Source: Diadema setosum
Lineage: Eukaryota > Echinodermata > Echinoidea > Diadematoida > Diadematidae
DNA length: 64,000 nucleotides
Direction: 5' to 3'
Assembly (NCBI GenBank): GCA_033980235.1
Contig: CM067075.1
Location: 23,004,061-23,068,060, forward strand
Made by a program: the position numbers and the translations under genes. Position 1 is the first letter of the stretch, and each line of letters begins with the position of its first letter. Below are positions 36,931 to 54,112 of this stretch, one piece after another. The notes under the pieces are model-generated. The model made no database searches. It was not told the DNA's origin and saw only the letters and a list, made by a program, of their open reading frames with translations.

Positions 36931-37281
36931 AAGTTTATTGGTATCAATGAACATTTCTCCTAAAAGTGAAGACTTTATATGAATCTTTGAGACTTCTAAA
37001 TTTCGTCTCAGCACAAATCAGTGCCATACATGACAGATTTATCTAGCGTGACAGTTTGCGATATTTAATTGATGTGTGACAGACAAGTTTGTTATGTTTG
37101 CATGGTTAACCTTTTTTGACGGTGGCATGGGCTGTTTCATTTCGACACGTCAAGTTCAATCGGCTTGTCGAGTTTGCTCCTAAATCAAGGTAATGGCAAT
37201 ATGACGGCTGCGTTTCCGCGGTTATGAGGCATATTTAGTCACTAGGATAGGATAGGAGGCGACGATAAATTAATGATAGAG

Positions 37282-37291
37282 CAAGGAGGTA

Positions 37292-37331
<40 letters not shown>

Positions 37332-37346
37332 ATACCTCCTCAAGTG
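37282..37346. mobile_element. Hairpin element A, loop expanded by (GT)n
   Basis: CAAGGAGGTAT ... ATACCTCCTCAAGTG around a 36-bp (GT)n. It is flanked by GATAGAG at 37,275-37,281 and 37,347-37,353. Confidence 0.6.
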
Positions 37347-37353
37347 GATAGAG

Positions 37354-37383
37354 CAGGGAGGTGAGACTCTTCTCCCCTCCCTG
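37354..37383. mobile_element. Hairpin element B
   Basis: 30 bp, CAGGGAGGTGAG ... CTCCCCTCCCTG. It shares GATAGAG with element A on its left and has a third GATAGAG at 37,384-37,390. Confidence 0.7.
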
Positions 37384-37454
37384 GATAGAGTGAGTAGCAT
37401 TCAAGTGAATGGAAGTACAACGGATGCACACACTGTAGTAATATTATATTGGAC

Positions 37455-37480
37455 TAAAGAGGTATCTATACACCTCCTTG
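37455..37480. mobile_element. Hairpin element C
   Basis: 26 bp, TAAAGAGGTAT ... ATACACCTCCTTG. Flanks ATTGGAC and ATGGGAC (6 of 7). Confidence 0.5.
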
Positions 37481-37645
37481 ATGGGACCAGAGTTATGGGC
37501 TTGTATACTCTTTGGGTACTAGTATTTGTTCTGTATCGGTCCACAGATACCAGGGAGTATTGTGAATAGGGCCTACGGTCAATGGTGAATCCCCACTGCA
37601 GACTTGACAGGTGAATCAGTCCGCTAGTTCTCATGTGCATGAAAC

Positions 37646-37718
37646 CAAAAAAAAAAAAAAAAGAAAAGAAAAGAAGAAGAAAAAACAAGGAGATACTAGG
37701 CTCGCCTATACCTCCTTG
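37646..37718. mobile_element. Hairpin element D with A-rich insert
   Basis: 73 bp. An A/GA-rich run is followed by CAAGGAGATA ... TATACCTCCTTG. Perfect 7-bp flanks ATGAAAC at 37,639-37,645 and 37,719-37,725. Confidence 0.55.
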
Positions 37719-37904
37719 ATGAAACCATGCGCATGCACGTGTTTGGTTTCTTGATGATTCTTATATGATTCAAATATAAACATCATAATTAAATTAATTA
37801 TTTTTGTTTTGTTTGTTCCACGTGGAAGGATAACAAGACATTTCACGTTCGAACTAGACAGATGGGAGCGAGATCCCCTCCTCCTCCTCTCATCTCGTAG
37901 AAAG

Positions 37905-38040
37905 ATATATTTCATTTCATTTTCATTTTATTGCTTCTGCATGGTACAAGACATCAACTAAATCACATACTTCGAAAGTATGTTACACATGGTTCATCAC
38001 TATTCATGGCTGATTTTGCACATGAAAGGTAAGAAAATCA
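37905..38040 (-). mobile_element. Reversed LINE 3' tail
   Basis: On the minus strand it ends ATAAAATGAAAATGAAATGA, an AT-rich tandem tail. No ORF. Confidence 0.35.
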
Positions 38041-38070
38041 TTGTGACAGAGAACAGAGATATAATAAAAG

Positions 38071-38126
<56 letters not shown>

Positions 38127-38130
38127 TATT
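38071..38130. repeat. (TA)n microsatellite
   Basis: About 30 TA units with a few interruptions at the right. Confidence 0.95.
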
Positions 38131-38233
38131 AGCATATGTTCGTATATTCTATTATTTTATATGCCGATCTCTATTCTCTCTCCCTTTCTCTCTGCCTGTT
38201 TCAACTCTGAGTCTGAGAGATATGATCTGACCA

Positions 38234-38587
38234 ATGACTATGATGGTTGCCCAAATCGGACATTCAATGCTTCAGTGCTCATTTTCAACTCCTGATGCTT
38301 TTCAATTGACCAAACTCACAAACTGGCCAATTACAAAAACTATACAAAACGTCGCTGCACGCATCGATTCTTTGTCAAGCAAACGCAGTCACCTATACCC
38401 CTATATCCTAACGAGTCTTCATTGGTTGCTTGTAAAAGAGCGTGTTAATTTTAAAATACTTCTTCTGGTTTATCATGTCATTGAGGGAACAGCTCCTGAT
38501 TACAATGTATGTTTATTTTGTCAATACCAACCTACGCGAACTCTTCGATCCTCAACTTCTGGTCACTTTATATTCTGCTTTCTGTAG
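38234..38587 (+). pseudogene. CR1-type retrotransposon ORF2, C-terminal fragment
   Basis: QNVAARIDSLSSKRSHLYPY, LTSLHWLLVKERVNFKILLL and YHVIEGTAPDYN followed by TRTLRSS match the very conserved end of CR1-like ORF2 (xNAAARLV..., LHWLPVxxRIxFKIL, hxGxAPxY, SRxLRSS). RT and endonuclease domains are missing. The frame stops early at TAG 38,585-38,587, and the usual final RLWNSLP segment is frameshifted or lost, so this copy is dead. Confidence 0.82.
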
Positions 38588-38870
38588 TACATGTATCTAA
38601 TTGGGGGAATTAGCTTTCTTTTCCATATAAAGTGAGCTGAAAGACTCAAGCTCTATAACGTCTTCTAGGAGTAACTTAAAATCCTATTTGTTTGACAGTG
38701 CGTTTTGAAGACAGACATTCATGTCTTCTTTTTATCTTCTTCTTCTTTAATGTATGTATTTTCAGTCTTTTTGCTGTGGTGTATTAAAGCGCCTTGAGCA
38801 TTTAATCAGAATGAAAAATGGCGTTAGAAATTGTATGTGTTATTGTTATTATTATCATCATTATTATTAT
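38588..38870 (+). mobile_element. CR1-type 3' UTR
   Basis: AAAGCGCCTTGAGCATTTAA ... AAATGGCGTTAGAAATTGTA ... (ATT)n is the standard CR1-like 3' end, continuing the ORF2 fragment. Confidence 0.7.
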
Positions 38871-39080
38871 ATCTTCATACTCAGTAAAGCAGCAAGTCCG
38901 TTCTTAAATATGACAGTGACCACTTAGATTTAGTCACTTCCCGACACCCCACACAGCTACCCTATATCGACACATGATCCAGGTCTCTGAAATCAGATAC
39001 AGAATTTCCGGTTGCAAACTATAGCTGTGTGTTTTGCATGTAGCATAGATAGTAGTAGCCACGTCATGACTTGGTTCAAC

Positions 39081-39112
39081 CATGGAGCTACTAACGTGTT
39101 AGTAGCTCCATG
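39081..39112. mobile_element. Hairpin element E
   Basis: 32 bp with perfect 15-bp arms CATGGAGCTACTAAC and a 2-base loop. GTTCAAC at 39,074-39,080 and 39,113-39,119. Confidence 0.75.
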
Positions 39113-39119
39113 GTTCAAC

Positions 39120-39150
39120 CAGGGAGGTGGAAGAGAGATCCACCTCCCTG
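39120..39150. mobile_element. Hairpin element F
   Basis: 31 bp, arms CAGGGAGGTGG with a 9-base loop. It is adjacent to E across GTTCAAC, with a third GTTCAAC at 39,151-39,157. A further TCCATGGTTCAAC remnant lies at 39,219-39,231. Confidence 0.75.
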
Positions 39151-39400
39151 GTTCAACCATGCTAACCATTGGGCTACAGCACAACTCAACTACTTAGTGT
39201 AATACTGTAGCTAGTAGGTCCATGGTTCAACGCGCGGGATGTAGATTTCTTGTGTCGTGCGGAATATTTAATTCACACGTGCAAATGTTGCATTGGAGCT
39301 GGATCTTGATATACAGTATACATCTCTCTCCAAGCTTGACGAATGAGGTACAGGAGACGGCGGCCTGTTGCAGTGAGTTACAAAGCCTGCATGGTTGCAT

Positions 39401-39415
39401 CAAGGAGGTACCTTG
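39401..39415. mobile_element. Hairpin element G (minimal)
   Basis: 15 bp, CAAGGAGGTACCTTG, between GTTGCAT (39,394-39,400) and GTTGTAT (39,416-39,422). Confidence 0.5.
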
Positions 39416-39422
39416 GTTGTAT

Positions 39423-39437
39423 TAAGGAGGTGCCTTG
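39423..39437. mobile_element. Hairpin element H (minimal)
   Basis: 15 bp, TAAGGAGGTGCCTTG, between GTTGTAT and GTTGCAT (39,438-39,444). A third start CAAGGAGGTTATGCC follows without a right arm. A simple 22-bp tandem duplication is the alternative reading. Confidence 0.45.
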
Positions 39438-39792
39438 GTTGCATCAAGGAGGTTATGCCTTTAATGTCTCCTTTCAAACTCGAGATCGGAGGGGCAGGAC
39501 TGTATCTAGAGGGAGAGCTGATGTAGCTACGAAAAATGTTTAAGCTTTATTTTTTTTTTCAATTAGGTATCACAGGCAACTTGTAAGCTACCTCCTTTTT
39601 TATATAATGGCCTTGATGAAGCGCTGAATTATAAAACAAATATGGCCCACTTGTAACAAAAAGAGAACAGATAACAGCTATCGGACATCACTGCACTGTT
39701 TATGATCCCTGTTATGAGCGACAAAATACGTATACTATATAAAGTACTAGGGTGTATGAGCACTGCACATGCGGATAGGATAGGAGTAAAAC

Positions 39793-39815
39793 CAGGGAGG
39801 CAACCCACCTCCCTA
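39793..39815. mobile_element. Hairpin element J
   Basis: 23 bp, CAGGGAGGCAACCCACCTCC followed by CTA. Preceded by GTAAAAC and followed by GAAAAC, a decayed duplication. Confidence 0.5.
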
Positions 39816-40280
39816 GAAAACCGAGGTGCCTCCCGCTACAACGATCACGATTAGATTTGGGCTGGTCGACGAGAGAAACAGGTGGTCAACGCGAGGGCAC
39901 ACAAGTTCTCCGTTATGACCAATTTTTCAACGGGCACAGTATACTTGACCAGGCACAGCGGCTGAGGTTTCAGTAATATTTCTTGTAGTTGTTAGACGTA
40001 TGAGATGACGTCTGTAGAGCTTTCTTGAACATGTGGGGAAATGAGTAGGGCCTACTCCGAGTAGAATCATTCTTTATATCTAAACGTATGCTTTTTCGTC
40101 AAATGTTTTGTGGTTCTATTTGGTACAGCAAATAGGTTGGGATTGTGTATAGTTATGTTTTTTGAAGGTTTGTATATTGTGTTAATCGCTTCGGGTCGTT
40201 AGTCCTCAGTGCTATTATGATAAAATATTTGACCACTATTCCCGAGAAACCGGGCAACTTGCGAAAGTGAAAAAGAAAAA

Positions 40281-40318
40281 TAACAGCAACAACAACAACA
40301 ACAACAACAACATCAACA
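40281..40318. repeat. (CAA)n microsatellite
   Basis: About 11 CAA units. Confidence 0.9.
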
Positions 40319-41690
40319 ACGGTATAAACCGCTTGGTTTTCTAACTTTGATTTCGTCAGCATAAAATGCTTTTCTTTCGAGACGCAGGTACATGTATGGG
40401 ATCAAGGTTGTGTATCAAGAAGAGGCAAATAACAACGGCTATAATCCAGGTTCAGCAATGTCAAGCTCAGGCAAAGCATGTTTTGATGTCGACTTGCTTC
40501 AGGCTCAGACCTCGTACGTAGCTCCATGCTCAGACTATACACAGACAGAACAGTAACGGAAAAGTAGTATGGATGTCGTCGGGACTGGAGATGCCCGCCA
40601 AGTTACGACAGCGTTGAAAGATGACTCCAAAACGTCCGTGATTAGCCAAGTATAGAGTTTATCATGGCAATGATCAATCTGGCCCCCTGACCTATTCGCC
40701 CTAACCTGGAGTGATAAATCATCGCTTCTACAGCATTACCTGCTGTAAATAGTGTAATCGTTGTGCATGTTCCTCGTGGAAATAATATTATGACGCAGTG
40801 AATAGGAATCGTTAGATGAAGCTCTCGCTTAGAATCTGAAGCGGGCCCGAGAAGAGGCTTCTGTCGACAATTACGTCCTATTGTGTCTTTGTGCGCAAAG
40901 TTTCCGCAGTTGGCTAACTTTATTAGGCACCACTTGACTGCTGTGGCCTCTATAATGCGTGACAAGTCCATCTCTTCACAGCTCTTTTGTGATCGGCTTG
41001 GAGCACGGGAAAGAGCTGCCCAGCCAGGCCCGGTTTCTTGTCGGGGGGTTTATTGTTAAATGCGTTGGCGTTGGCGATTTGTAGAGGGGAAACACAATCA
41101 CCCGAGAAAGGACCCCAGCGATTACTAGCATTGTCGAATTCGCGATTGGAGATTCGGGGCCCTACCGAGTGCCATTCACCGTGTCAATGGGCTGGGGAAG
41201 GCGTGTTTTTCAGGTACTCCTCCTTTGAATACATACTGGGAAGGGGACCTCCGCCTTCTCATGTAAGTTTATGCCTCCGTCGAGAATTGTCGTTTTGATA
41301 ACACCGTATATGGCGCGATTTTGACAGCTCGCTTCCACCCAGGGGACGGGACATGGCCGATCCTCTCATAATAATATCGTGGGCAAAAATTTGGGGAGAC
41401 TCCACTGCGAGTTGTTCATGTCATAAATCGCAGATCCCTACATCGTGTTTATGTACCTCTCCTGAGCATTGACTTGTTCCACGAATCTGCGGAATGTGTT
41501 CGGGTGCTCCCTATCCCCGTGTATGTACAATGTATGCTGTGTTATTATATCCTCCTTTCATTTTTTCCAATATTAGAAATAGATGTTGTTTTTTGTGTAG
41601 GGTAATATCACGCTCAACCGCAGGTTTGCTACTGCAGTCAAAATGATCGTCATTTCCCCTTTCTCACAAACGAATAATTCAAGCGGTCCG
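40319..41690. other. No gene recognised; GC-richer unique-looking DNA
   Basis: The stretch 40,440-41,480 is more balanced in GC than its surroundings, with no exon-like block. The frame 41,038-41,298 has no motif. It could be regulatory sequence, but nothing direct shows this. Confidence 0.3.
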
Positions 41691-41696
41691 TATACA

Positions 41697-41726
41697 CAGG
41701 GAGGTGGTTCTCTTTCCACCTCCCTG
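41697..41726. mobile_element. Hairpin element K
   Basis: 30 bp, arms CAGGGAGGTGG with an 8-base loop. Perfect flanks GTATACA at 41,690-41,696 and 41,727-41,733. Confidence 0.78.
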
Positions 41727-41866
41727 GTATACAGTACCTCCACACTAAGATGGGACAGGAGATAAAGAGGTCATATCGGGGATATACAGAAGGGGCGACG
41801 AGAGACACCCCCCCCCCCCCCCACTCCAGAAGGTTCGCTCCATATCGAGACCATTCATAACTGATT

Positions 41867-42490
41867 AAAGAGGAGTTCCAGTCCAGATATAAAGTTAGTA
41901 TGCTAAGAAAGAGTAAAATCTAACCAGTACAACAGTGAAAATTTAATCAAAATTGGATAAGAATTAGGGAAGTTACATTTGTATGAAGTTACGCAAATAT
42001 CTGCGGTACAGTTCTCGTACAGTTGATTCTATGAATATGCAGATGAGTGAGCTGATGATGTCATCACCTTACAATTTTCCGTTGGTCTTGTACAAAAAAG
42101 AAAATTGCGAAAATTTACTGTTTCTGTTATTACAGTGTAGGCTCAAAACATGATGGTATGTCTGGTTGTATAACTTCAGAATAACTATCAGTTATGGTAG
42201 ATATATCGGGATTTGAGACTGGGATGTAGGGCCTATAGATTATAATTGTATTTGAATGAAAAACTAGAAATTTCATAATCGTATGTAGGCCTACAAACTG
42301 TGCAAGTTTTGAGGGTACTAAATGTGACATCATTACTTCATTATTTGTATGCATGTATTTATATTGACTGTTCAAGAACTATATCCTGGAAAAAATAGTA
42401 CAAACTTTATCCGATTTTGATAAAATTCTCATTGTGGTAGGTACTGAGTAAAATTATCTCCTTCTTTTCAGACTAACTGTAATCTGCACT
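41867..42490. mobile_element. 620-bp foldback element, diverged copy 2
   Basis: GTTCCAGTCCAGATATAAAG at the left and CAGACTAACTGTAATCTGCA at the right, with the same internal blocks (CAGTTCTCGTACAGTTGA, AATATGCAGATGAGTGAGCT). The right end is decayed next to a piece of the 92-bp MITE (42,500-42,568). Confidence 0.65.
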
Positions 42491-42499
42491 ATAGAGAGT

Positions 42500-42568
42500 C
42501 ACGTATACTCGGGCAGGTGTCTATGGGAAATGTGTGTATAGCAAAATCAGTCCGTCCACAATACGGGT
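42500..42568. mobile_element. Partial 92-bp palindromic MITE
   Basis: GTATACTCGGGCAGGTGTCT followed by ATGGGAAATGTGTGTATAGC, as at 10,393. Confidence 0.55.
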
Positions 42569-43106
42569 GAGTGCTTTCTCGAATTGAGGCCCTCTTTTCC
42601 AGAATGGATGCCCTCCTGATGAAGAGAGGACGGTGAGTGAAAGTAAACAAAGAGACACATGCAAAAGAGGAAGGAGAAGCAGATAATGGTGAAGAACAGA
42701 CGGAGGAGGAGGAGGAGGAGGAAGAAGAAGTCGATGGAGAAGTTGAAGATTACAACAAGGATAGAAGAAGAGTAGGAGGCTATCATAATGTACAGGAGAA
42801 GAAGAGTAAGAGTTTAGCGGCAGCAGTTGTAATAATTGCAATAGAAGTACATGTGTATAGCTGTCGTGGTAGTATAGTTTTAGTAGTGAAGCAGTATTAT
42901 ACTACAAGTGTATAGTAGGAGCAGTGGTAACGTAGTTGAACGAAATTACGAGTCGATTTTTACCGTATTACTGATTGAAGCTTACAGCGAAATAGTAAGT
43001 GACTCCACACTATTCTACTTTTGATGAAGTTACGATTGAGGACCATCAAATTGCCGTACGTCGTAGGATAAGAGCTCTGCCATGATAAACATGATTTCCA
43101 ATAAGC
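42569..43106. other. No gene recognised
   Basis: A GAGGAA-rich purine stretch (42,690-42,730) gives an acidic frame with no motif. Confidence 0.4.
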
Positions 43107-43113
43107 GTCCAAC

Positions 43114-43139
43114 CATGAACCCTACCACTAGGGTCCATG
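43114..43139. mobile_element. Hairpin element L
   Basis: 26 bp, CATGAACCCTA ... TAGGGTCCATG with one arm mismatch. Perfect flanks GTCCAAC at 43,107-43,113 and 43,140-43,146. Confidence 0.7.
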
Positions 43140-43146
43140 GTCCAAC

Positions 43147-46100
43147 TGATGGGGTTTTGATATTCATACAATAATTTTGCCTGTGATATAACCTAAACCT
43201 TGACACGCCGCCATCTGTTTTAGATCTGATTTAGATGTGTTTCAATTATACATAAACAATGATTTATTTTGACCCCCAAATTCATCTTTGGAATGTACCG
43301 ACACCGTTCAATTTCAGCAAGCAGTCTGTTGCCTTCTGTCAATGAATGTTTGCGTTGTTGCCGATGGCATGGTTCCCAGGGCAGCAAAAGAAGTATATTA
43401 TATACCGTACATATGCAGTATAAATTTTCCTACCTATAAAGGTTTGAATCAGAGATTTTTTTCATGAACAGAGCTTTTGTTTCCTTGTTTTAAATGCCTC
43501 AGCGTCTATAACAAGGACCTTTTATGCTGATAATATAACTATATGAATATAATCCTCACAATATCATATTTACGGGGAAAGATGAAAGAGAGATGGAATG
43601 GCAATCGTATATTAGGACAGGGTATTAACTATATACAGTAGCTCGTATGACATTACAGAGACTGAAACGGAGACTAAGCGTCACAATGTGCGCAGTTATC
43701 TACAGCAGCCTGCCCAGACAAACGAGGCTAGTAACTTCCTAAACCTTTTGTGATGGTGGAAATGAAGGGAAATGACTAATACCACGAATACTATTTGAAG
43801 GAAATCGTGCCTGTGGCGAAAACCATTTTGCGTTTTTCGACATGACGTTGGAAGTTCAAAATGACATAGTTGATTTACTCTCTTATTGTGCCATCTTTCC
43901 TCCTTCCCATTTTATAGCCGTTCTTTTCTTCCCTTTTCTTTTTGTTCTTTTTATCTCTGTCTCGTTCGTCTTTCCTGCTCCATTTGTGTCAACACAAACT
44001 TCGCAGCGTAACATCATGTTGAAAAGGTCTAGATTAAAGTCAGAGATACATGTAATAGTGACAACGTTCCGAAGAACTGAATACTGAAGTGATATTTTAT
44101 ATGGCGAAGAATAAGGCGAGGAAATGGGATGTAGATTGATTCATTGGTATCGAATCTTGCAGTTCAGATGAAGGACCATGTCGGGGCCAGACATGTTTTT
44201 ACAAAGGTTCTATAATTGACATCTAGGCCTGAGGAAATAGCCGGCATGCATATAGCTGCTGTGGTATCTTCCGTGTGTAGCATGCTGAGTAGATGACATA
44301 AAAAAAAAGATACAACTGTAAAGCCTCAGTAAGTCTGAAAACACACTTGATCAACATGATCCTGGGATGTTCATGGTAGGGTCTCATGAAGCACTGGACT
44401 GTAAACTAAAGCTTGCGACGATCGCCATTACATTGTAGGACCCTACTTTTGCAGGAACCAGGCAACAGCCCATCAATTATTGGCATTTTGAAACATTGCC
44501 ATGGTAACCGCAATCATCCCAACTGCAACCAATCCCAAACCTCTGACTAAATTTGGTAAAATTTGGTAAAAAAAAAATTGACTAAATTCAGTAAGGAGCA
44601 GAATCTACACGTACATCATTGTTTCCTGGTAAGCAGACTATCACGGTTCAGCAAATGAAGGCATATTGTACCGCAACCATCTACTGTCGATTTGTTCCGC
44701 GACAAAACTGTACTTTTCTGTCCAGGCGACCTTTCCTGCCCATGTAGTCAGTCGTTGGGTTGACTCGATCAGGAAGAGGAGATGCGATAAAAAGCAACTT
44801 CCGGTTCCCTTGTGACCTCTCGACGGAGACATGTCTGTGCTAGCTGGAGAGATGTTGTGTCACCACAATTTTCTAAGAGCTCGCAGTCCTCACTCAAATC
44901 ATTAATTCCAGGATATTGCCACTCAATTTGGGCCCTAATTGATTGCAACGAACATCAAACAGCTATCAAACAGATAAAAGTTTATGATTGTCTGTGTGAT
45001 GGTATGTGTGTTTGTATATACGTTTCAATTAAAAACGTTGTAGGAGTTCAGCCACTTTGCGCCATTTCCTTTCGCCGTACCCACTTGCAACGGGTACGGT
45101 CGAAGTGGGACGAGACAGTTAGAACTTTAGACACTTAAATTGATGCCATTTGATGTCCATAACGCTCATACATACACGAAATGTCGACATTTCCTGATTG
45201 TTTAAGCTCTCGTAAGTTTCAATAAGCCAGTTCGGGGTTCCACTTTGAGCATGAGCAGAAAAAGGTCATCTGTACCAGCAGAGCATGGTGGTTTTTAAAT
45301 TCACTGAGATAAGCATCTGTAATGTAATGATTATTCAACTGATCCCTATAAGTGGTGCTTGCCAGCACATCCACCTGACAGCAAAAGCGGTGTCTGACAA
45401 TATCAATAGAAAGAGATTGTTAATACATGCAATGCAAAATAATGAAATGGATGCTTTCCAAAATGCCAATGGAAGGATCATTCTGGTCACCTGGTCTATG
45501 CAAGTTCATCCTTTGTTTGAACATGACTGATGAATTCCATAAATTGTTACGTTGGGCAAGCTCATGCCTTCTGTCGCTTGAAACTAGTAGAGTGCCTAAT
45601 CAACTGAGAAAGAAGAAAGGTCATTTGTACCCATGTGCCCATGAGCTAACCCCGAAATGGCTTATACTTTTCGTCTAAATGGTGCATCATCGTCAACCTA
45701 TGAACTGAAAGGAGACCTCCAGATGATTTTCAGACTTTTACATATGAACAACTATAAATTGGTTATACCGGGTACAGAGTTTCAGAATTTATAGTGATTG
45801 GGATGAGGAAAAAGAATGTTTTCAAAATTTATAACAAATCACTATGAACAGGGATGATGACATGACAGCCTCACTAAAGGAATGCACAAGTTGGGGCTCA
45901 AGGAAGCAGAACAAAAGAAGAAGGCATGCATACATTATCCACAGGTGAACTTGCAAACTGGCAGTATTGTAATGGGAATTACACTGCTACATTTCTGAAA
46001 TATGTGAGGCTCCTGTGTCATCATCATTGTTCAGTGTAATTTGTTTAAGGTTTTTCAAAGTATTTTTTCTCTGCTCAAGGACCACAATAAATTCCACAAA

Positions 46101-46320
46101 TCTACACATGGAGCTGTTGATTTATGTACTACATGATGTGACATTATGAAAATCGTCTGGAATGCCCCTTGAACACTACAGCATCACGTGTCCTGCTGCA
46201 GGACGAACACAGTACAACCAGGGAGGTGCGCCTCCCTGGGACAACATATTCAATGTGGTGTCATGTTTTGTGAATTTGAGTATAGGTTCCGATTTAAGGA
46301 TGTCCTGTTCCAAAAATCAA
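43147..46320. other. No gene recognised
   Basis: Unassigned DNA except for hairpin M (46,219). A single X-box-like palindrome ATTGCCATGGTAAC lies at 44,495-44,508. Frames at 43,842 and 44,812 have no motif. Confidence 0.4.
46219..46238. mobile_element. Hairpin element M
   Basis: 20 bp, 8-bp arms CAGGGAGG/CCTCCCTG around TGCG. Flanks GTACAAC and GGACAAC (6 of 7). Confidence 0.65.
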
Positions 46321-46323
46321 TCA

Positions 46324-46519
46324 GGGTCCCGTTGCATAAAACTTTTTTAGCAACCTTAGAAAATTCTGGTTGGGATTTGCCCAACCTGAATTTTTTAAGG
46401 TTGCTAATCTAAGAATGTAAAATCCGTTGCATAAAAAACTCTGGTTGGGAGCTTCCAACCGGAATTTTGTGATTTCAACCAGAAAAAAAATCCGGTTGGA
46501 GTTTTATGCAACGGGCCCC
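46324..46519. mobile_element. Foldback MITE, ends GGGTCCCGTTGCATAAAA
   Basis: 196 bp. The right end is TTTTATGCAACGGGCCCC. The interior has nested inverted units of GGTTGGGA/TCCAACC and AGCAACCTTA/TAAGGTTGCT. Confidence 0.7.
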
Positions 46520-47692
46520 AGATCTTTTGGTATGCAAACACACGGAAAGCCATTATACACTATACGTATTAAAGCATGCATCATTTTCAAGACTTTCTGC
46601 GATGATTATGAAAAACAAACAAACAAACAATGCTCCCCTCGCAAGATGCATGCCCCTAGCACTTGAAAAACACTGTGGGTGTTTCTGAGAAATGTATAGT
46701 TCGAAAACATTCTATGGACGCAAAAGATTAGAGACATAACTTGTTTTCTTTCTGTATATCCACATCTTAAAGCCATTATTTGCTACTGAGAGCAGTGAAT
46801 AAATCGTTTCCTTTCAGTATATAACCATTTAAAACCACTGTTTACCAGTGGGAGCAGTGATTCAAAAATACGTTCGTGTTATCACACCACATTTGATGCA
46901 TATGTATAGTTCGGTTGCATCACAAAACATACCATATAAACATTTCGCAATAAAGCCACAAATATAAAAAGAGACTCCACCAATTTTCTCAATAAACCGT
47001 AACTGTAAACGGTTTATTCTAAAAGCAATTTTGATAAAACCACCTTTTGCATATTTATCAATACATACTTCATATTGATTATACTGATTGACATTTTTAC
47101 ATTTTTTCAATTTTTTCTATCCCTAAATCATATTTTAGAACAGTATTTTGAAGCACTAAAGCTGTTTTTTTTTTTTCATCCGCAAATTGTATAATAGTGG
47201 CTTTAAGAGTGTGATGTGAATCATTCCACATATTTCAGTTACAGGCCTGCGAACAGACCAAAGGAAAGACACTGAAAGATTGTACTTGGTTTGTCGTGAT
47301 AAAAACTGCTTGTTCTCTCCTTACACTTTAATAGTCAGACTAAACCGAAGAAAGGGCAGCAGTCCATTATACGGTCCTTGCAGTGAAAGTGGTGAGACTG
47401 TTAGGCAGAACATGTAGGCATGTTGTGCCTCAAAGTATTTACACTTAATTTCACTCTGGAGAAGTGATTCACTCCCACGTCAGTCCGGGAAACATACGGC
47501 CACAACTGCCGCAGGAAAACATCGCTATGAGCGTGACGGTAGTATATGGAAGGTCGTCAATGACGCGGCCTAAACGGAGGCATCTTGAGTTACTGCAGCA
47601 GGAAATGAGCTTGTCTCTTACATCACCCTATGGGCCAACCACTGCAAGGGATATAATGATAATGATAATGATTATAAAAACTTTGTCATGGC
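46520..47692. other. No gene recognised
   Basis: AT-rich unassigned DNA; 46,760-46,860 contains two short imperfect repeats around TATTTGCTACTGAGAGCAGT. Confidence 0.4.
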
Positions 47693-47701
47693 TGCAACTC
47701 C

Positions 47702-47726
47702 CCCCCCCCCCCCACACACACACACA
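47702..47726. repeat. poly-C and (CA)n run
   Basis: Simple sequence at the left edge of the 1-kb foldback. Confidence 0.9.
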
Positions 47727-47740
47727 CTACAGCCCGTACA

Positions 47741-48734
47741 CAGAGCGTATCAAAAAAAGAAGAAGAAGGTAATCCAACTTTGGAGGGCTGCGATTTCGTA
47801 ATTGTCAGTTATATGTGAAGAGATAACTGTAGGGTCAAATGCATTGATCCTCTCATCATAAAACTAGGAAATTATGGAGGGCTCAATGTTAGTTGTAAGG
47901 AAAGAGGAAGCCTCTTTCCATTGATACCTAATTATGTTGACAATTGTCATGCATGATCGAGCACATGGACTTTAAAGACAGCAATGACAAATTGCACTTT
48001 TTCCAAGTTTGCGTGTTATTGTGAAGGAACAGTGAATGTCTGACTGCATGGATGAGATCTGTCAATGAAAGTGGTCAAATCATCAGGCCAGCCTGCACGA
48101 CTGCAGATTTGTGTTTTAGGGTTTCTTCTAACGTTTTATGGTTCATAACCTTCAACATGGCCACGTTGTCGATATTTGGTCCTTCCCATTAAGGCGAAAC
48201 CATTATCCATTTTACTCTCTTCATATTCATGACATGGTTTGCCACTGGAAGCTATGTGCTGAATATGAACAGAGAAAAATGGATTGTGTTGGTTAGCCTC
48301 TGTGGGAGCAGGGAGGTGAGTTTTGTCTCACCTCCCTGGTGGGAGCGACCAAGTTTTCGGACAAAAGGCCATGTTAAAGGTTATGGACTATAAAATGTTA
48401 GGAGAAAACCTAAACACAAAACCTAAACATAAACCAGCATTCGTACAGGCTGGCCTATTTGGCAACTTTCATTGACAGATCTCATCCATGCAGTCAGATA
48501 TGCACTGTTCCTTCACAATAACACGCAAACTTGGAAAAACTGCAAGTTGTCATTGTTGTCTTTAAAGTCCATGTGCTCAGTCATGCATGACAATTGTCAA
48601 CTTAATTAGGTATCAATGGAAAGAGGAAGAGTTCCCATCTCCTTACAACCAACATTGTGCTCATCATAACTGACAATTAAGAAATGGCAGCCCTCCAAAG
48701 TTGGATAACCTTTTTTTTTTTTTTGATACGCTCT
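47741..48734. mobile_element. 1-kb foldback element
   Basis: Long inverted arms: the left starts CAGAGCGTATCAAAAAAAG and the right ends TTTTGATACGCTCTG. Complementarity (CCAACTTTGGAGGGCTGC; TTGACAATTGTCATGCATGA; TTGCGTGTTATTGTGAAGGA) runs about 450 bp into each arm. No transposase. TGCAACTCC lies outside both ends (47,693-47,701 and 48,772-48,780). Confidence 0.78.
48309..48338. mobile_element. Hairpin element N, inside the 1-kb foldback
   Basis: 30 bp, perfect 12-bp arms CAGGGAGGTGAG and a 6-base loop. Perfect flanks GTGGGAG at 48,302-48,308 and 48,339-48,345. Confidence 0.8.
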
Positions 48735-48741
48735 GAATTAC

Positions 48742-48762
48742 CAGGGAGGGGCCACCTTCCTG
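48742..48762. mobile_element. Hairpin element O
   Basis: 21 bp, CAGGGAGG ... CCTTCCTG. Flanks GAATTAC and GTATTAC (6 of 7), directly at the right end of the 1-kb foldback. Confidence 0.6.
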
Positions 48763-48820
48763 GTATTACATTGCAACTCCACATGAAGTGTTCCCGATGG
48801 CTTGAATAAACGGAAAGTAA

Positions 48821-48836
48821 AATAGTAATAATAATG

Positions 48837-48871
<35 letters not shown>

Positions 48872-48908
48872 TATAATAATAATGATAATAATAATAGTAA
48901 TATTGTTA
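48821..48908. repeat. (AAT)n microsatellite
   Basis: ATA/AATA/ATG trinucleotides. Confidence 0.9.
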
Positions 48909-49102
48909 GAAATGATAAGAAATAGATAAATAAAAAAAAGCTATGGTAGAGGGCGGGCTTCATCAAAATTGGACAGAACTTCGGAAGGGAAGGAATTTCT
49001 GAAGTTTCACATTATTTTGTGCAACAGTAACATTATACAAATGATGCACAGGACAGAGTGGATCGGTGAGATTTGGATGCTCGAGTTTAACTTTGGAACT
49101 GT

Positions 49103-49486
49103 TTAAAGGGACTGTACAGTACTGGTTGAGGTGGGGATTCATGTTTTAAACATTCCTAAGTGAGATAATGAAAAGCCTCTTATGAAATATGAAAGAGCAT
49201 GTAATTCTAAGAAGGATTCAACGTTTATTTGATGAAAATTGATTTTCAAATGGCTGAGATATCCAAAAAAGTGCTAATAATAAAAGGCGACATGCCACAA
49301 CTTTATTAGGATCTCTTTGTTTCACCTTGTTTTTGGATATCTCAGCCATTTCAAAACCGATTTTCATCGAATAAACTTTTGATACCCCTTAGAACTGCAT
49401 GCTCTTTGTCATCTCATAGAGTGGTTTCTGAATATCTCGCAAAACGTTAAAAGCTAAATCCTCACCTCGACCAGAACTGTACACAA
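49103..49486. mobile_element. 390-bp foldback element, copy 3
   Basis: TTTAAAGGGACTGTACAGTA ... GACCAGAACTGTACACAACC. The centre is decayed (GGCGACATGCCACAACTTT). Confidence 0.75.
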
Positions 49487-50343
49487 CCTCCACGAGCACA
49501 GCGAGTGGGTTTCAGACTGTTCCGAAGTTAAACGAGAGCATCCAATTCTCACTGATCCACGAAATAGGCATGTGCATCATTTGTGTTATAAATTGGGGCC
49601 CATAAATTCATGAAATACAACCATTTTCCCCATCATGCGTCTGGTACACCTACTACACTATACAAGACTTGAGCCATGCTTTCGGATTTTACCGGGCGCA
49701 TGGCTTAGTGTGGCTCAGTAAAAATCAATGCATGACAATTGACCAATCAGATTGCAGAGATTCTAAAGCCCATGTCATAATATTATATCAACCAAATGCA
49801 TCAAGGAGGAACTGATCATATTATTTTACCATCGTCTCGTTGGTCCCCATCATTTTTATCAATACCTACCATGCCTACATTCATGATTCTTCTCAGAACT
49901 TCCTGTTTTACAAGAAGTAGAATAACAATTAGGAAGTATCTTTCGCGTCAAATCTTTTGGTGATCTGGCAACGGTGCATTTTAGTGAGAAAAAGGTTTAA
50001 ATTACTTAATATTGTCGATGGGGAAGAATATGTGTTTTTTATTAGTTTTAACATCTTTGCGACCAAATTCAAAACATGTAAAATATTTTGAATTCCGCAA
50101 CTTTCTTATTTAACTTCCGATTTTGGTTAAGGTTCCTTCATTCTATTTGTCTTATGCTTTTATACCCTCCACGAAGTCAATTTGAACATGGTGTGCAAAT
50201 CGCACATTATCAGCACAGTTCAACATTGGGCAATCTCCACGCATGATTGTGCTACTGAAATGCGCCTTCGTCGCAGCTCGCAAACCGCGAATAAAACAAA
50301 TGACTAATCGTTATTGTACCATGCAGCTTTGGCAAGGTTACAG

Positions 50344-50377
50344 CAGGGAGGTGGAAGATCTTTCTTCCACCTCCCTG
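50344..50377. mobile_element. Hairpin element P
   Basis: 34 bp, perfect arms CAGGGAGGTGGAAGA around TCTT. Perfect flanks GTTACAG at 50,337-50,343 and 50,378-50,384. Confidence 0.8.
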
Positions 50378-50941
50378 GTTACAGACAAGTGAGCCGCAAT
50401 CGCAATCTATGTAGAGTGAAGGTCGTTTTAGCCAGACGAAAATGAATTCATATAATAGTAGGGCCTATATCCGTCACGAAATGTGCTAAAATTAGAACAA
50501 TAGTATAGCAGCTGATTCAACAAAGAGAATTATAAGTGCTCAAGAACAGAACCCCCCCCCCGCACTGCTGTAGATTTTATTGTTAGATAATTATATTAAA
50601 TAATATATACAAATGAATGTAATAGAGCAGAATGACATTGGGTAATTTGATTGAAGCCATTTCCCGACCGCTGACGTGATACTCTTTGTATACATTGACG
50701 AACCCATAGCCTTACAATTGACACGTTATAGTTCCACTCGCTGGTTGGAATGAATCATGCAGGTGGTCACGGCGTGTCGCTGTGTTTAAATAAATCTTTT
50801 GCCACCTGTAGTAAAACGAAATCTTCCCCAAATATTCACGTGGATTTAATGGATTCAGAAATGTTACAAGGCCTCAGTGAAGCTTGAGGAAAATCGAATG
50901 TAGTCTGTCCAAAAGTTATGGGTGTTTGTAATTTGCTAGGG

Positions 50942-51316
50942 TTAAAGGGATTATACAGTTTTGGTTGACACCTAACTTCCGGTTTCGGTCATTTTTCGGT
51001 GAGATGGTGAGAAACCTTTTATAAAATATGAAAGAGCATCTAATTTCAAGAGGAATTCGACGTTTATTTGATGAAAATTGGTTTTGAAATTGCTTGAAAT
51101 GGCTGAGATATCCAAAAAGAGCGATCCTTTTTTTTTCCTTTTTTTTTTTTTTTTTTTTGGATGTTTCGGCATTCCAAAACCAATTTCCATCAAATGAACT
51201 TTGAATTCCTTTAAGAATGGTATGGTCTATACTATTTCATAAGTGGTTTCTTAGTATCTCACAAAAAGTGAAAAGCCCAATCCTCATCTCCACCATTACT
51301 GTACCATCCCTTTAAA
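50942..51316. mobile_element. 390-bp foldback element, copy 4
   Basis: TTAAAGGGATTATACAGTTT ... TACTGTACCATCCCTTTAAA. The centre has become a long poly-T run. Confidence 0.75.
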
Positions 51317-53605
51317 CCGATGTGCTGTCATCGCCGGATGCAAGAAAACTGCAACAATTTTTAGTGTTGCACAAATTGAACGGTATGAAAAAAAAAAAAT
51401 GACGAAAATCTGAAGTATTTTATTTCGTCCCAGTATTATAGAAGAACAGTCGTCTTACCTCCAGAAGGTACATAATGGGAGATAATACCACCGCTGCCAT
51501 GCATATACTTCGAGCAGCTGTCGAGAGAATATGTGCATTTATACGGAGAATTTGATTCGAATTGTTGTAGCTTGTTATTTGGCGATAATTCCATCAATTC
51601 ACAATCGGTTCCTGCCACCTAGGCCTAAGCTTTTCTTTAACGTAAACAATGGACAAGTATGTGACACCAACAACTGATAATTTTTCATATTTTCCATTCA
51701 CGATTGTGCACAAACAATCCCTTTTGTCCACAGAAAACAAGAGAGGGAGAAAGTTGGTCAGAGCGAGATGAAGGGTTACTTGTTACAAGACTAGGGGTCC
51801 GTTGTCAGCAAAAAAGTTCATTAATTATGTACTTCCGTATGTCGTGATGATTACACTTCTGTTACATACGTAATGCCTATAACAATGACAGTGGTGTATG
51901 TGATGTATATCCTGTGTGTACAAACATACGTACCGAGGGGTACAGAGAAAAAGATTCTATTCAAGAAATTTGCTCATAAGTACCAAGACTCATAGTGATA
52001 TCGATGTTTCGATTGGATTTGGAAATAAAAACCTTGCTCAATATAATTTATGCAAATGACATAAGTGCAATATAAACTCTCTTTGAATATTCATAGGCCT
52101 ATAGCAAAATTAGTACCTTTCAAAATAGCAGGTGATGATACAGTCCTGAAAATTAGTGAAATTCATTTGAGACTTTGAAGTTTTGTTAATTTTTTTAGCA
52201 TTATATTCAATAGGAAATTAAACTTGAATAATGTAGATTATATATATCTGTTTGCTAAAGAATCTCTCTCTTAAATCTTAAATCGACTTAAATACGATTT
52301 GCCCATAATAATTTTTGTTAGCCTTGTATAATGCTCGTATTTCATCTTTCTTATATTTCAATTCTATCTAGGGGAGCTATTCTTACCAAATTCAATACCT
52401 CTTCCCTATACAAAAGAAAGCAATCTGAATTTGCACAAAATCGGAACAAGACTTGAATAAAATGAAAATTATACTATATTCTCTCATGCAGCGCTAACAT
52501 GTCAAAACTTCGTAACCTTAGCCACTTGACCATGTTTTCCGTAAAAAATTCAAAAAAAAAAAGAACAAGAAATGTTGATTAAAAATTCCCCATTTATTTG
52601 CTTCGTCTCTTCAGTATGAATATTTTATAAGGCCTATATGTGTTTCATTCTTATTTTTGTTCTAACCATTTACCTTTTAATCAAATTATTTGCTCCACTC
52701 TTTTAGCACGAGTTGTTAATACGTGCAATTAGTATATGTTTTGAGTATTTGTAACATAACAAGACCATTTCGGCTTTTTTTCACACATACCATATTCCAA
52801 TCATTGATTACACAATACACACACACACACACATACATATACATACAAGACTTGAGATGGAAAGAAAAAATGTCTCTTTACGGGATGTGAAATATACAGG
52901 AAGTGATGATGAAGTTGACACACTCGATAAGAAACTTTCGACGCAATAATGTCACGTCTTGAACGCTTAACTCCATACGTGGGGGTTTCGAATGTGGCGA
53001 GAATTTAACTTTCGGGTTTTTTTTTTCACTTGAGTCCGTCAGACTGCAGACTGAGTTCATTTTGAAAAGCCATCACTGTCAAATGTCAGAAGACATTATG
53101 TAGTGGAGTAAATCACATAACGCCTACATATCTACCGTGTATAACCATGGAACATTTGTTGCTACATTTTGGCGAACACAGTCTTTGCCAAGTTTGAATA
53201 ATTTGGCTGTGGTTGTCGTTGTCCGCTGTGTCGTCAAGATTGCGTAAATATTTGCGCAGGAACACGGTGAAACATAACCGAAAAACATTGTCAATCATGA
53301 TTTATTTCGGTACTGAGGAATACAGAGACGTTAAAGGCAATATAGTATTCGTTAATGAATGAAATAATGAAAGGAGTAAAGTAGACAGGGGAAAGTGTCA
53401 CAATGAATTTTGACTTACATGGCTTTATACCTTTGAAGATAGTGGTGGGTGGATTTCAGAAAATATTGAAATTTGCCGACTGAGTTGTATGGTGATGTTT
53501 AAGCGCGTAGAAAAAAAAAACAAGAAAAAGTCAGCATTCCAGCATACAAACACATACACACACTTAAAAAAAGACAGAGAATTGTATTGACTTTATCAAG
53601 ATAAC
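51317..53605. other. No gene recognised
   Basis: AT-rich unassigned DNA; (CA)n near 52,815. Confidence 0.4.
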
Positions 53606-53637
53606 CAAGGAGGTATCACATACGATAAACTTCCTTG
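53606..53637. mobile_element. Hairpin element Q
   Basis: 32 bp, CAAGGAGGTAT ... ATAAACTTCCTTG. Flanks AGATAAC and AGAGAAC (6 of 7). Rightmost member of the family seen. Confidence 0.55.
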
Positions 53638-54112
53638 AGAGAACTATGAACAAGTTTAGTATCATCATGTCAGTGAACGGTTTAAGTGGTTAATTTAACA
53701 TTATTTAAACTGTAATTTCAACCGTAAGTTATTCATTCATATAATAATTCCTATGTGTCATATCTAGACCTATTCATGGTGGGTGGCCTTGCAGGCAGAC
53801 CCCGATCTCCATATTCATACTTATTATTCCACGTGCCCGAACAGGCATTTTGAGCATGGGGCCCGATATTCTTAAAAGACTAATATTCATTCATCTTACT
53901 CAACACTGAATTATGGTTGCCTTCCAGGGCAGGGCGAGCCTGCAAAAAAAAAAAAAAAGTGGCTTTGTAGCGGTACGCTGCTGCACCATCAGTATAAGCT
54001 CTTCTAGATTCTAACTTTTCTTAAAAAAAAAAAGTGAATGAAGGAGGAGAATAACAGAAAAATGATGGTAAAAGACTGACAAATCTCTCCGTCTTGCATG
54101 CTTTCAGCGACA

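What the first reader, a model, noticed from the sequence alone, without database searches (positions are those of the whole stretch)
37275..53644. A family of tiny palindromic insertions (15-73 bp) flanked by 7-bp direct repeats
At least 16 hairpins with ends CANGGAGGT / ACCTCCNTG are scattered over 16 kb. Flanking 7-mers are identical at six loci: GATAGAG, ATGAAAC, GTTCAAC, GTATACA, GTCCAAC, GTGGGAG and GTTACAG (the first and third shared by two units). Four more match at 6 of 7. Loops differ in sequence and length while the ends are shared, so the copies are not segmental duplicates. Repeated exact 7-bp duplications at palindrome edges are what a transposase or recombinase with a staggered cut leaves. 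The arms occupy nearly the whole element, leaving no room even for a usual MITE interior. CAGGG ends recall hAT elements, but those give 8-bp duplications; 6-7 bp duplications are known for Dada. I know of no described family of this size in animal nuclear genomes.
Basis: partly seen in the sequence, partly recalled or inferred. Interest (0 to 1): 0.88.

Follow-up and report, generated by a model that had tools for sequence, protein, structure and literature searches.

The report
Scars left by P-element-like transposon excision
Thousands of tiny hairpin-shaped inserts in this animal genome look like the repair scars left behind when a P-element-like jumping gene cut itself out, each keeping at most about 18 letters of either end of the lost element.

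Summary
In the window 7 hairpins with ends CA..TG carry exact 7-bp flanking duplications, and 3 more of the same kind carry them with one mismatch, between 37 and 54 kb. The genome holds 3287 copies of CAGGGAGGT-N(4-30)-ACCTCCCTG; the backwards control gives 0. Of the first 15 listed, 12 have the exact 7-bp duplication, and hairpin-free paralogues of two loci carry the 7-mer once. What was inserted is probably not the hairpin itself. The hairpins mostly break down into two arms of at most 18 nt of a few related ends, with little filler; at 49-78 bp the count drops to 118. That is the anatomy of P-element excision joints: duplication, up to 17 nt of one end, filler, up to 17 nt of the other, duplication (PMC2895639 Table 1, from Rad51-deficient flies). 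The palindromic 7-bp target GTTNAAC resembles that of Galileo, P superfamily (GTATTAC, PMC4168063), and the genome encodes P-type transposases. Best reading: fossil excision footprints of a P-superfamily transposon. The full-length parent was not found.

The parts
37275..37353 (.). Imperfect unit 37282-37346 (CAAGGAGGTAT ... CCTCCTCAAGTG with a TG run) between two GATAGAG copies
   Evidence: read; only as part of the 102-bp composite row
37354..37383 (.). 30-bp hairpin, duplication GATAGAG at 37347-37353 and 37384-37390
37646..37718 (.). 73-bp unit ending in hairpin CAAGGAGATACTAGG/CTCGCCTATACCTCCTTG (37686-37718); ATGAAAC at 37639-37645 and 37719-37725; the left arm is not adjacent to the 7-mer
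   Evidence: read
39081..39112 (.). 32-bp hairpin with other ends (CATGGAGCTAC), duplication GTTCAAC
39120..39150 (.). 31-bp hairpin, 18-nt arm (CAGGGAGGTGGAAGAGAG) plus 12-nt arm and 1-nt filler, duplication GTTCAAC shared with its neighbour
39401..39437 (.). Two 15-bp units CAAGGAGGTACCTTG and TAAGGAGGTGCCTTG between GTTGCAT, GTTGTAT, GTTGCAT
   Evidence: read
41697..41726 (.). 30-bp hairpin, duplication GTATACA
43114..43139 (.). 26-bp hairpin with other ends (CATGAACCCTA/TAGGGTCCATG), duplication GTCCAAC
46219..46238 (.). 20-bp hairpin, GTACAAC/GGACAAC
48309..48338 (.). 30-bp hairpin: CAGGGAGGTGAG joined to an 18-nt arm (reverse complement CAGGGAGGTGAGACAAAA), duplication GTGGGAG
48742..48762 (.). 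21-bp hairpin, GAATTAC/GTATTAC
50344..50377 (.). 34-bp hairpin: 15-nt plus 18-nt arms and 1-nt filler, duplication GTTACAG
53606..53637 (.). 32-bp hairpin of the CAAGGAGG type, AGATAAC/AGAGAAC

Best explanation
These are excision footprints of one or more P-superfamily DNA transposons with a 7-bp target duplication. Steps: (1) an element with ends CAGGGAGGT... inserted at a GTTNAAC-like site and duplicated 7 bp (an insertion with duplication is shown; that it was a long element is inferred); (2) a P-type transposase cut the 3' ends at the element border and the other strand about 18 nt inside, so each donor end kept a tail of about 18 nt of the element (inferred from the 18-nt ceiling and from Drosophila P); (3) end joining of the two tails, with trimming, short overlaps or filler, left duplication + up to 18 nt + up to 18 nt + duplication (inferred from the joints). 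New rounds hit the same spots, giving rows and nests of footprints.
For: 7-bp duplication, exact in 12 of the first 15 listed copies and specific in length (31 distinct units at 7 bp, one of them with unrelated ends, against 2, 0, 2, 1 at 5, 6, 8, 9 bp). Hairpin-free paralogues with one 7-mer for two loci. Length ceiling: 3287 at 22-48 bp, 118 at 49-78 bp; 21 of 28 listed strings of the longer class that I classed hold a further copy of the end inside. Of the first 50 listed hairpins 26 are two arms with no filler, 14 have 1-3 nt, 10 have more; with shuffled interiors 1.1 on average and at most 4 in 500 trials are filler-free. Arms stop at nt 18: base 19 is C 19, A 16, T 13, G 6 in 54 distinct site views that carry one full 18-mer end. 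Arms of type A (GGRAA) and B (GAGA) do not mix in hairpins with both arms of 14 nt or more: 8 A/A, 5 B/B, 0 A/B of 13 (2.4e-4 for random pairing; part of that set was fetched by an A end); one A/B pattern has only 3 matches genome-wide (its A/A comparison not obtained). One-armed copies exist. The same anatomy is tabulated for Drosophila P excision with 17-nt tails. Palindromic 7-bp target, as in Galileo. 16 P transposase matches in the genome and a 910-codon frame with HTH, both RNase H parts and the GTP-binding domain.
Against: No full-length parent with these ends was found: five one-armed sites have no matching end next to a second 7-mer within 5 kb (in two of the five the 7-mer recurs elsewhere, without such an end), and two P transposase loci of 7 kb show no fitting ends. 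The fly table of direct tail joints comes from Rad51-deficient flies; in wild-type flies most products come from interrupted gap repair before joining. Arm sequences were defined from the same hairpins that they explain, so 26 of 50 is partly circular. 3 of the first 15 listed copies lack the duplication, and the one filler-free 18+18 unit read has flanks alike at 5 of 7 (L056/L057). If the two B ends (BL, BR) were left and right end of one element, BL-BR joints should dominate: the sample gave 5 BL-BR and no other (two of the five are forced by overlap), but genome-wide I find 23 BL-BR, 8 BL-BL, 6 BR-BR, not different from random pairing (p 0.19). Some units exceed 36 bp with longer fillers (37-55 bp). 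A repeat family continues past nt 18 (18-mer + ARGAGTG; L040, L046, L055, L077, L096, L098; L079 as far as ARGAGT), unexplained.
Confidence: 0.73

Rival explanations
1. One reading: the hairpins are themselves mobile, the smallest DNA transposons known, moved in trans by a transposase that needs only the outer ends and makes a 7-bp duplication.
For: Insertion with duplication and empty sites; parent not found; clustering (4 strict copies in the window against 0.24 expected, the window being chosen for them; 7 of 49 gaps under 12 kb on C1 against 2.3).
Against: The middle differs between most copies (45 distinct of 50), so no one hairpin is being copied; the arm ceiling of 18 nt with filler or overlap at the joint is left unexplained; Drosophila P has 31-bp ends plus internal transposase binding sites (PMC7776569, passages), for which a 30-bp unit has no room (inference); one-armed copies.
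Confidence: 0.14
2. Extremely short MITEs made by internal deletion (interrupted gap repair) of longer elements.
For: Interrupted gap repair followed by end joining gives most products of P excision in wild-type flies (PMC2895639, passages); a few 37-78-bp units with real filler exist.
Against: Internal deletions should end anywhere, but the arms end at or before nt 18 and the count falls sharply above 48 bp.
Confidence: 0.08
3. Footprints or insertions of another superfamily (hAT, Dada, Mutator, CACTA).
Against: Duplication is 7 bp (31 units) rather than 8 (2); palindromic GTTNAAC target resembling that of Galileo; keeping long symmetric pieces of both ends needs a long stagger, described as unusual and distinctive of P.
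Confidence: 0.05

Closest known systems
Drosophila P element excision junctions (PMC2895639; section 7 with Table 1 read; passages)
   Same: Target duplication, then up to 17 nt of one end, short overlap or filler, up to 17 nt of the other end, target duplication; one-sided losses also occur.
   Different: 8-bp duplication; products of one test locus in Rad51-deficient flies, not thousands of inherited copies; ends CATGATG instead of CAGGGAGGT.
Galileo, P superfamily (PMC4168063, passages)
   Same: 7-bp duplication (rarely 8) with palindromic consensus GTATTAC inside a 15-bp palindrome.
   Different: Galileo has long inverted ends (PMC3688188, passages) and many visible copies (191 characterised); the word footprint does not occur in the main text of PMC4168063.
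Zebrafish Pdre2/THAP9 (PMC10983969, passages)
   Same: Animal P-type transposon and transposase outside insects.
   Different: 8-bp duplication, 13-bp ends.
P-element MITEs of Anopheles (PMC1562414, title and start of abstract in a listing)
   Same: Non-autonomous P relatives.
   Different: Ordinary MITEs by recall; nothing further read.

Membership tests
P superfamily transposon footprint | Direct duplication of 7-8 bp flanking | tested here: met
   7 bp; 12 of 15 exact; 31 units vs 2, 0, 2, 1 at 5, 6, 8, 9 bp
P superfamily transposon footprint | Palindromic target motif | tested here: met
   GTTNAAC, n=30; Galileo GTATTAC
P superfamily transposon footprint | Arms limited to the length of the donor tail (17 nt in Drosophila P) | tested here: met
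   ceiling at 18 nt, one more than in P; length cut-off
P superfamily transposon footprint | P-type transposase in the genome | tested here: met
   16 PF12017 matches, 0 of 14 control genomes; 5 of 5 proteins scanned carry P transposase domains; none is tied to these ends
P superfamily transposon footprint | Full-length parent with the same ends and a P transposase | tested here: not met
   not found round 5 one-armed sites or 2 transposase loci; the search was small
P superfamily transposon footprint | Joint of left with right end of one asymmetric element | tested here: inconclusive
   23 BL-BR, 8 BL-BL, 6 BR-BR (p 0.19)
hAT | 8-bp duplication | tested here: not met
   2 at 8 bp against 31 at 7 bp
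Ordinary MITE | Shared interior among copies | tested here: not met
   45 distinct of 50

The most novel reading that the evidence does not exclude
The hairpins are mini-transposons of 20-36 bp in their own right, mobilised in trans without internal binding sites and re-diversified in the middle at each jump by end joining: the smallest DNA transposons known.
Probability: 0.1. Interest if true: 0.9.

Novelty: new variant of a known kind. Interest (0 to 1): 0.58.

Why it matters
If right, a genome keeps thousands of sequence-level records of germline double-strand-break repair at transposon tails, so end-joining habits (overlap, filler, trimming) can be read from evolution instead of single-locus assays, and the past of a vanished transposon can be counted from its scars. 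It would also set a stagger of about 18 nt and a 7-bp duplication for a P relative, and it warns that tiny palindromes with target duplications need not be MITEs.

Tried and rejected
Rejected: chance; segmental copies of one hairpin (45 distinct of 50; true repeats exist, and L038, L048, L080, L087, L091 and L098 were dropped as copies before the count); simple MITE; hAT. Tried without result: finding the parent round five one-armed ends and two P transposase loci; BLAST with the 78-bp BL..BR unit, which is unique in full and has four partial matches to its interior that could not be read; the left/right test of the B ends (inconclusive). The 8-bp CACAGAACTCTT family could not be counted and the A/A comparison for one search was not obtained. 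The ten paper searches (three of them returned no paper) listed no title or abstract start that describes a genome-wide class of P footprints; that says nothing about papers outside that library or those terms.
Full report
What was checked. The window is 64 kb, 38% G+C, from an unnamed 885.7-Mb assembly in 96 contigs, at C17:23004061-23068060. I scanned for units with CA..TG ends, matching terminal 7-mers (one mismatch allowed) and an exact duplication of chosen length on both sides. Length 7 gave ten rows, which are seven simple hairpins plus three composites; 8, 9 and 10 gave none, 6 gave one unrelated row; 18 of 20 resampled windows gave none. The seven lie in 37.3-50.4 kb. With one mismatch in the duplication three more of the kind appear, up to 53.6 kb.

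Genome-wide. The pattern CAGGGAGGT-N(4-30)-ACCTCCCTG occurs 3287 times; the backwards control 0. The first 15 listed, all on C1, were cut out: 12 have the exact 7-bp duplication, L004, L011 and L015 do not. In the 297,596 bases held at that point (a sample chosen for hairpins) 31 distinct units had a 7-bp duplication, one of them with unrelated ends, against 2, 0, 2 and 1 with 5, 6, 8 and 9 bp.

Insertion shown. Joining flanks with one 7-mer and searching all held sequence found hairpin-free relatives for two loci. L005 (TTCAAAG) lies in an interspersed repeat; relatives such as window 33041-32923 and L034 619-749 carry TTCAAAG once at the joint and no hairpin, others have near versions of it or gaps there. 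L008 (ATGCGAG) lies in a tandem repeat; a unit of the same array (L035 1078-1230, which is the same place as L008 1090-1242) and one elsewhere (L048 1939-1787) carry ATGCGAG once; other units have extra bases there. All are paralogues at 70-93% identity, not orthologues.

Target. 30 of the 31 units (the one with unrelated ends dropped) give G 70% and T 83% at positions 1-2 and A 83% and C 47% at positions 6-7, with a further T/A preference three bases outside, a palindromic GTTNAAC. Galileo of the P superfamily has 7-bp duplications (8 in three copies) with consensus GTATTAC inside a 15-bp palindrome (PMC4168063, passages).

Anatomy of the hairpins. Between 49 and 78 bp the count falls to 118. 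The listing shows letters for part of them, on C1-C5; of 28 strings that I classed, 21 contain another copy of the end inside, i.e. are adjacent or nested hairpins. Examples of nesting: C1:11637485, an outer unit hosting CAAGGAGG..CCTCCTTG between two GTGAGAC; C1:8797273 and C2:6079874, hosting a CACAGAACTCTTACA hairpin between 8-bp repeats (read; L082). Six end sequences, all beginning CAGGGAGGT, describe the arms: GGGAAGAGA, GGAAAGAGA, GGAAGAGAG, GGAAGAAAG, GAGAGGAAA and GAGACAAAA (74 distinct hairpins). Of the first 50 listed hairpins (45 distinct), 26 are two arms without filler, 14 have 1-3 nt, 10 more than 3; shuffled interiors give 1.1 on average. The ends were derived from these hairpins, so this is description more than test. 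The better test is the stop: 60 sites with the full 18-mer CAGGGAGGTGGGAAGAGA were read, 6 dropped as copies; in the 54 left the next base is C 19, A 16, T 13, G 6. In 20 of 54 the exact 7-mer returns within 36 nt; 20 fall into a class with a second-arm-like string and altered flanks (the sorting pattern is loose; L034, L058, L084, L090 and L101 look one-armed to me); 14 are one-armed, nested (L082) or of the ARGAGT kind (L077, L079, L096) (L046/L047 and L056/L057 are two views of one site each). The one filler-free 18+18 unit read is a 36-bp palindrome (L056) whose flanks agree at 5 of 7.

Pairing of arms. Among 13 hairpins with both arms of 14 nt or more, A-type pairs with A-type 8 times, B with B 5 times, A with B never (2.4e-4 by random pairing; part of the set was fetched with an A end). 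One A/B pattern has 3 genome-wide matches; its A/A comparison was not obtained. BL-BR has 23 matches (15 + 8 by strand), BL-BL 8, BR-BR 6, which does not differ from random pairing of the two (p 0.19). That goes against my first idea, suggested by 5 of 5 BL-BR in the sample (two of them forced by overlap), that they are the left and right end of one element.

Mechanism. P transposase cuts the 3' ends of the element at the border and the other strand 17 bp inside (PMC7776569, passages), and the donor ends keep 17-nt non-complementary 3' tails (PMC2895639, passages). Table 1 of PMC2895639 (section 7) lists repaired excision sites from flies without Rad51: duplication, up to 17 nt of one end, overlap or filler (some templated), up to 17 nt of the other end, duplication, plus one-sided losses. 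In wild-type flies most recovered products come from incomplete gap repair followed by joining, so direct joining of tails would have to be common in the germline of this animal. The hairpins match the table with 18 in place of 17 and 7 in place of 8. The genome has 16 matches to the P transposase HTH family, none in 14 control genomes; five proteins read from these loci all carry the RNase H N-terminal and GTP-binding domains, three of them the RNase H C-terminal domain as well.

What is missing. I did not find the parent. Five one-armed sites show no matching end next to a second 7-mer within 5 kb; in two of them the 7-mer recurs without such an end. Two transposase loci of 7 kb show no fitting ends and may be host genes. 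A repeat family in which the 18-mer continues with ARGAGT (L040, L046, L055, L077, L079, L096, L098) may be a remnant of a longer end and is unexplained.

Distribution. The window holds 4 strict copies against 0.24 expected, though it was chosen for them; on C1, 7 of 49 gaps are under 12 kb against 2.3 expected (segmental repeats not removed). Local hopping and insertion near promoters are described for P (passages); whether the 37-54 kb stretch is a promoter region was not tested.

Verdict. Observation confirmed; insertion by a transposase with a 7-bp stagger supported by paralogous empty sites; reading as a self-inserting micro-family replaced by excision footprints of a P-superfamily transposon, confidence 0.73.

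Noticed in passing
L082; G000 C1:8797273-8797329: A second hairpin type, CACAGAACTCTTACA..TGTAAGAGTTCTGTG, 34 and 28 bp, flanked by 8-bp duplications (GTCTCTTC in L082, GGTGAGAC on C1), nested in CAGGG hairpins; 34 is 2x17.
   Followed up: partly
G000 C3:479597-480107: A hairpin unit amplified as a tandem array with 47-bp steps.
   Followed up: no
window 47741-48300 and 48340-48741: The stretches on either side of the 48309 hairpin look like inverted copies of each other, so that hairpin sits in the middle of a larger palindrome (read by eye).
   Followed up: no
window 33041-32923, 49162-49270, 54442-54327: Copies of an interspersed repeat (..TTCAAAGTTTATT.GATGAAAAT..) whose hairpin-free members serve as empty site for L005.
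   Followed up: partly
L040, L046, L055, L079, L098: Repeat with a CACTTTACA-like flank in which the 18-mer end continues as ARGAGT; possible remnant of a longer element end.
   Followed up: partly
L070 1407-4136 minus strand: Open 910-codon frame with P transposase domains and a THAP9_C match; transposon or host gene not decided.
   Followed up: partly
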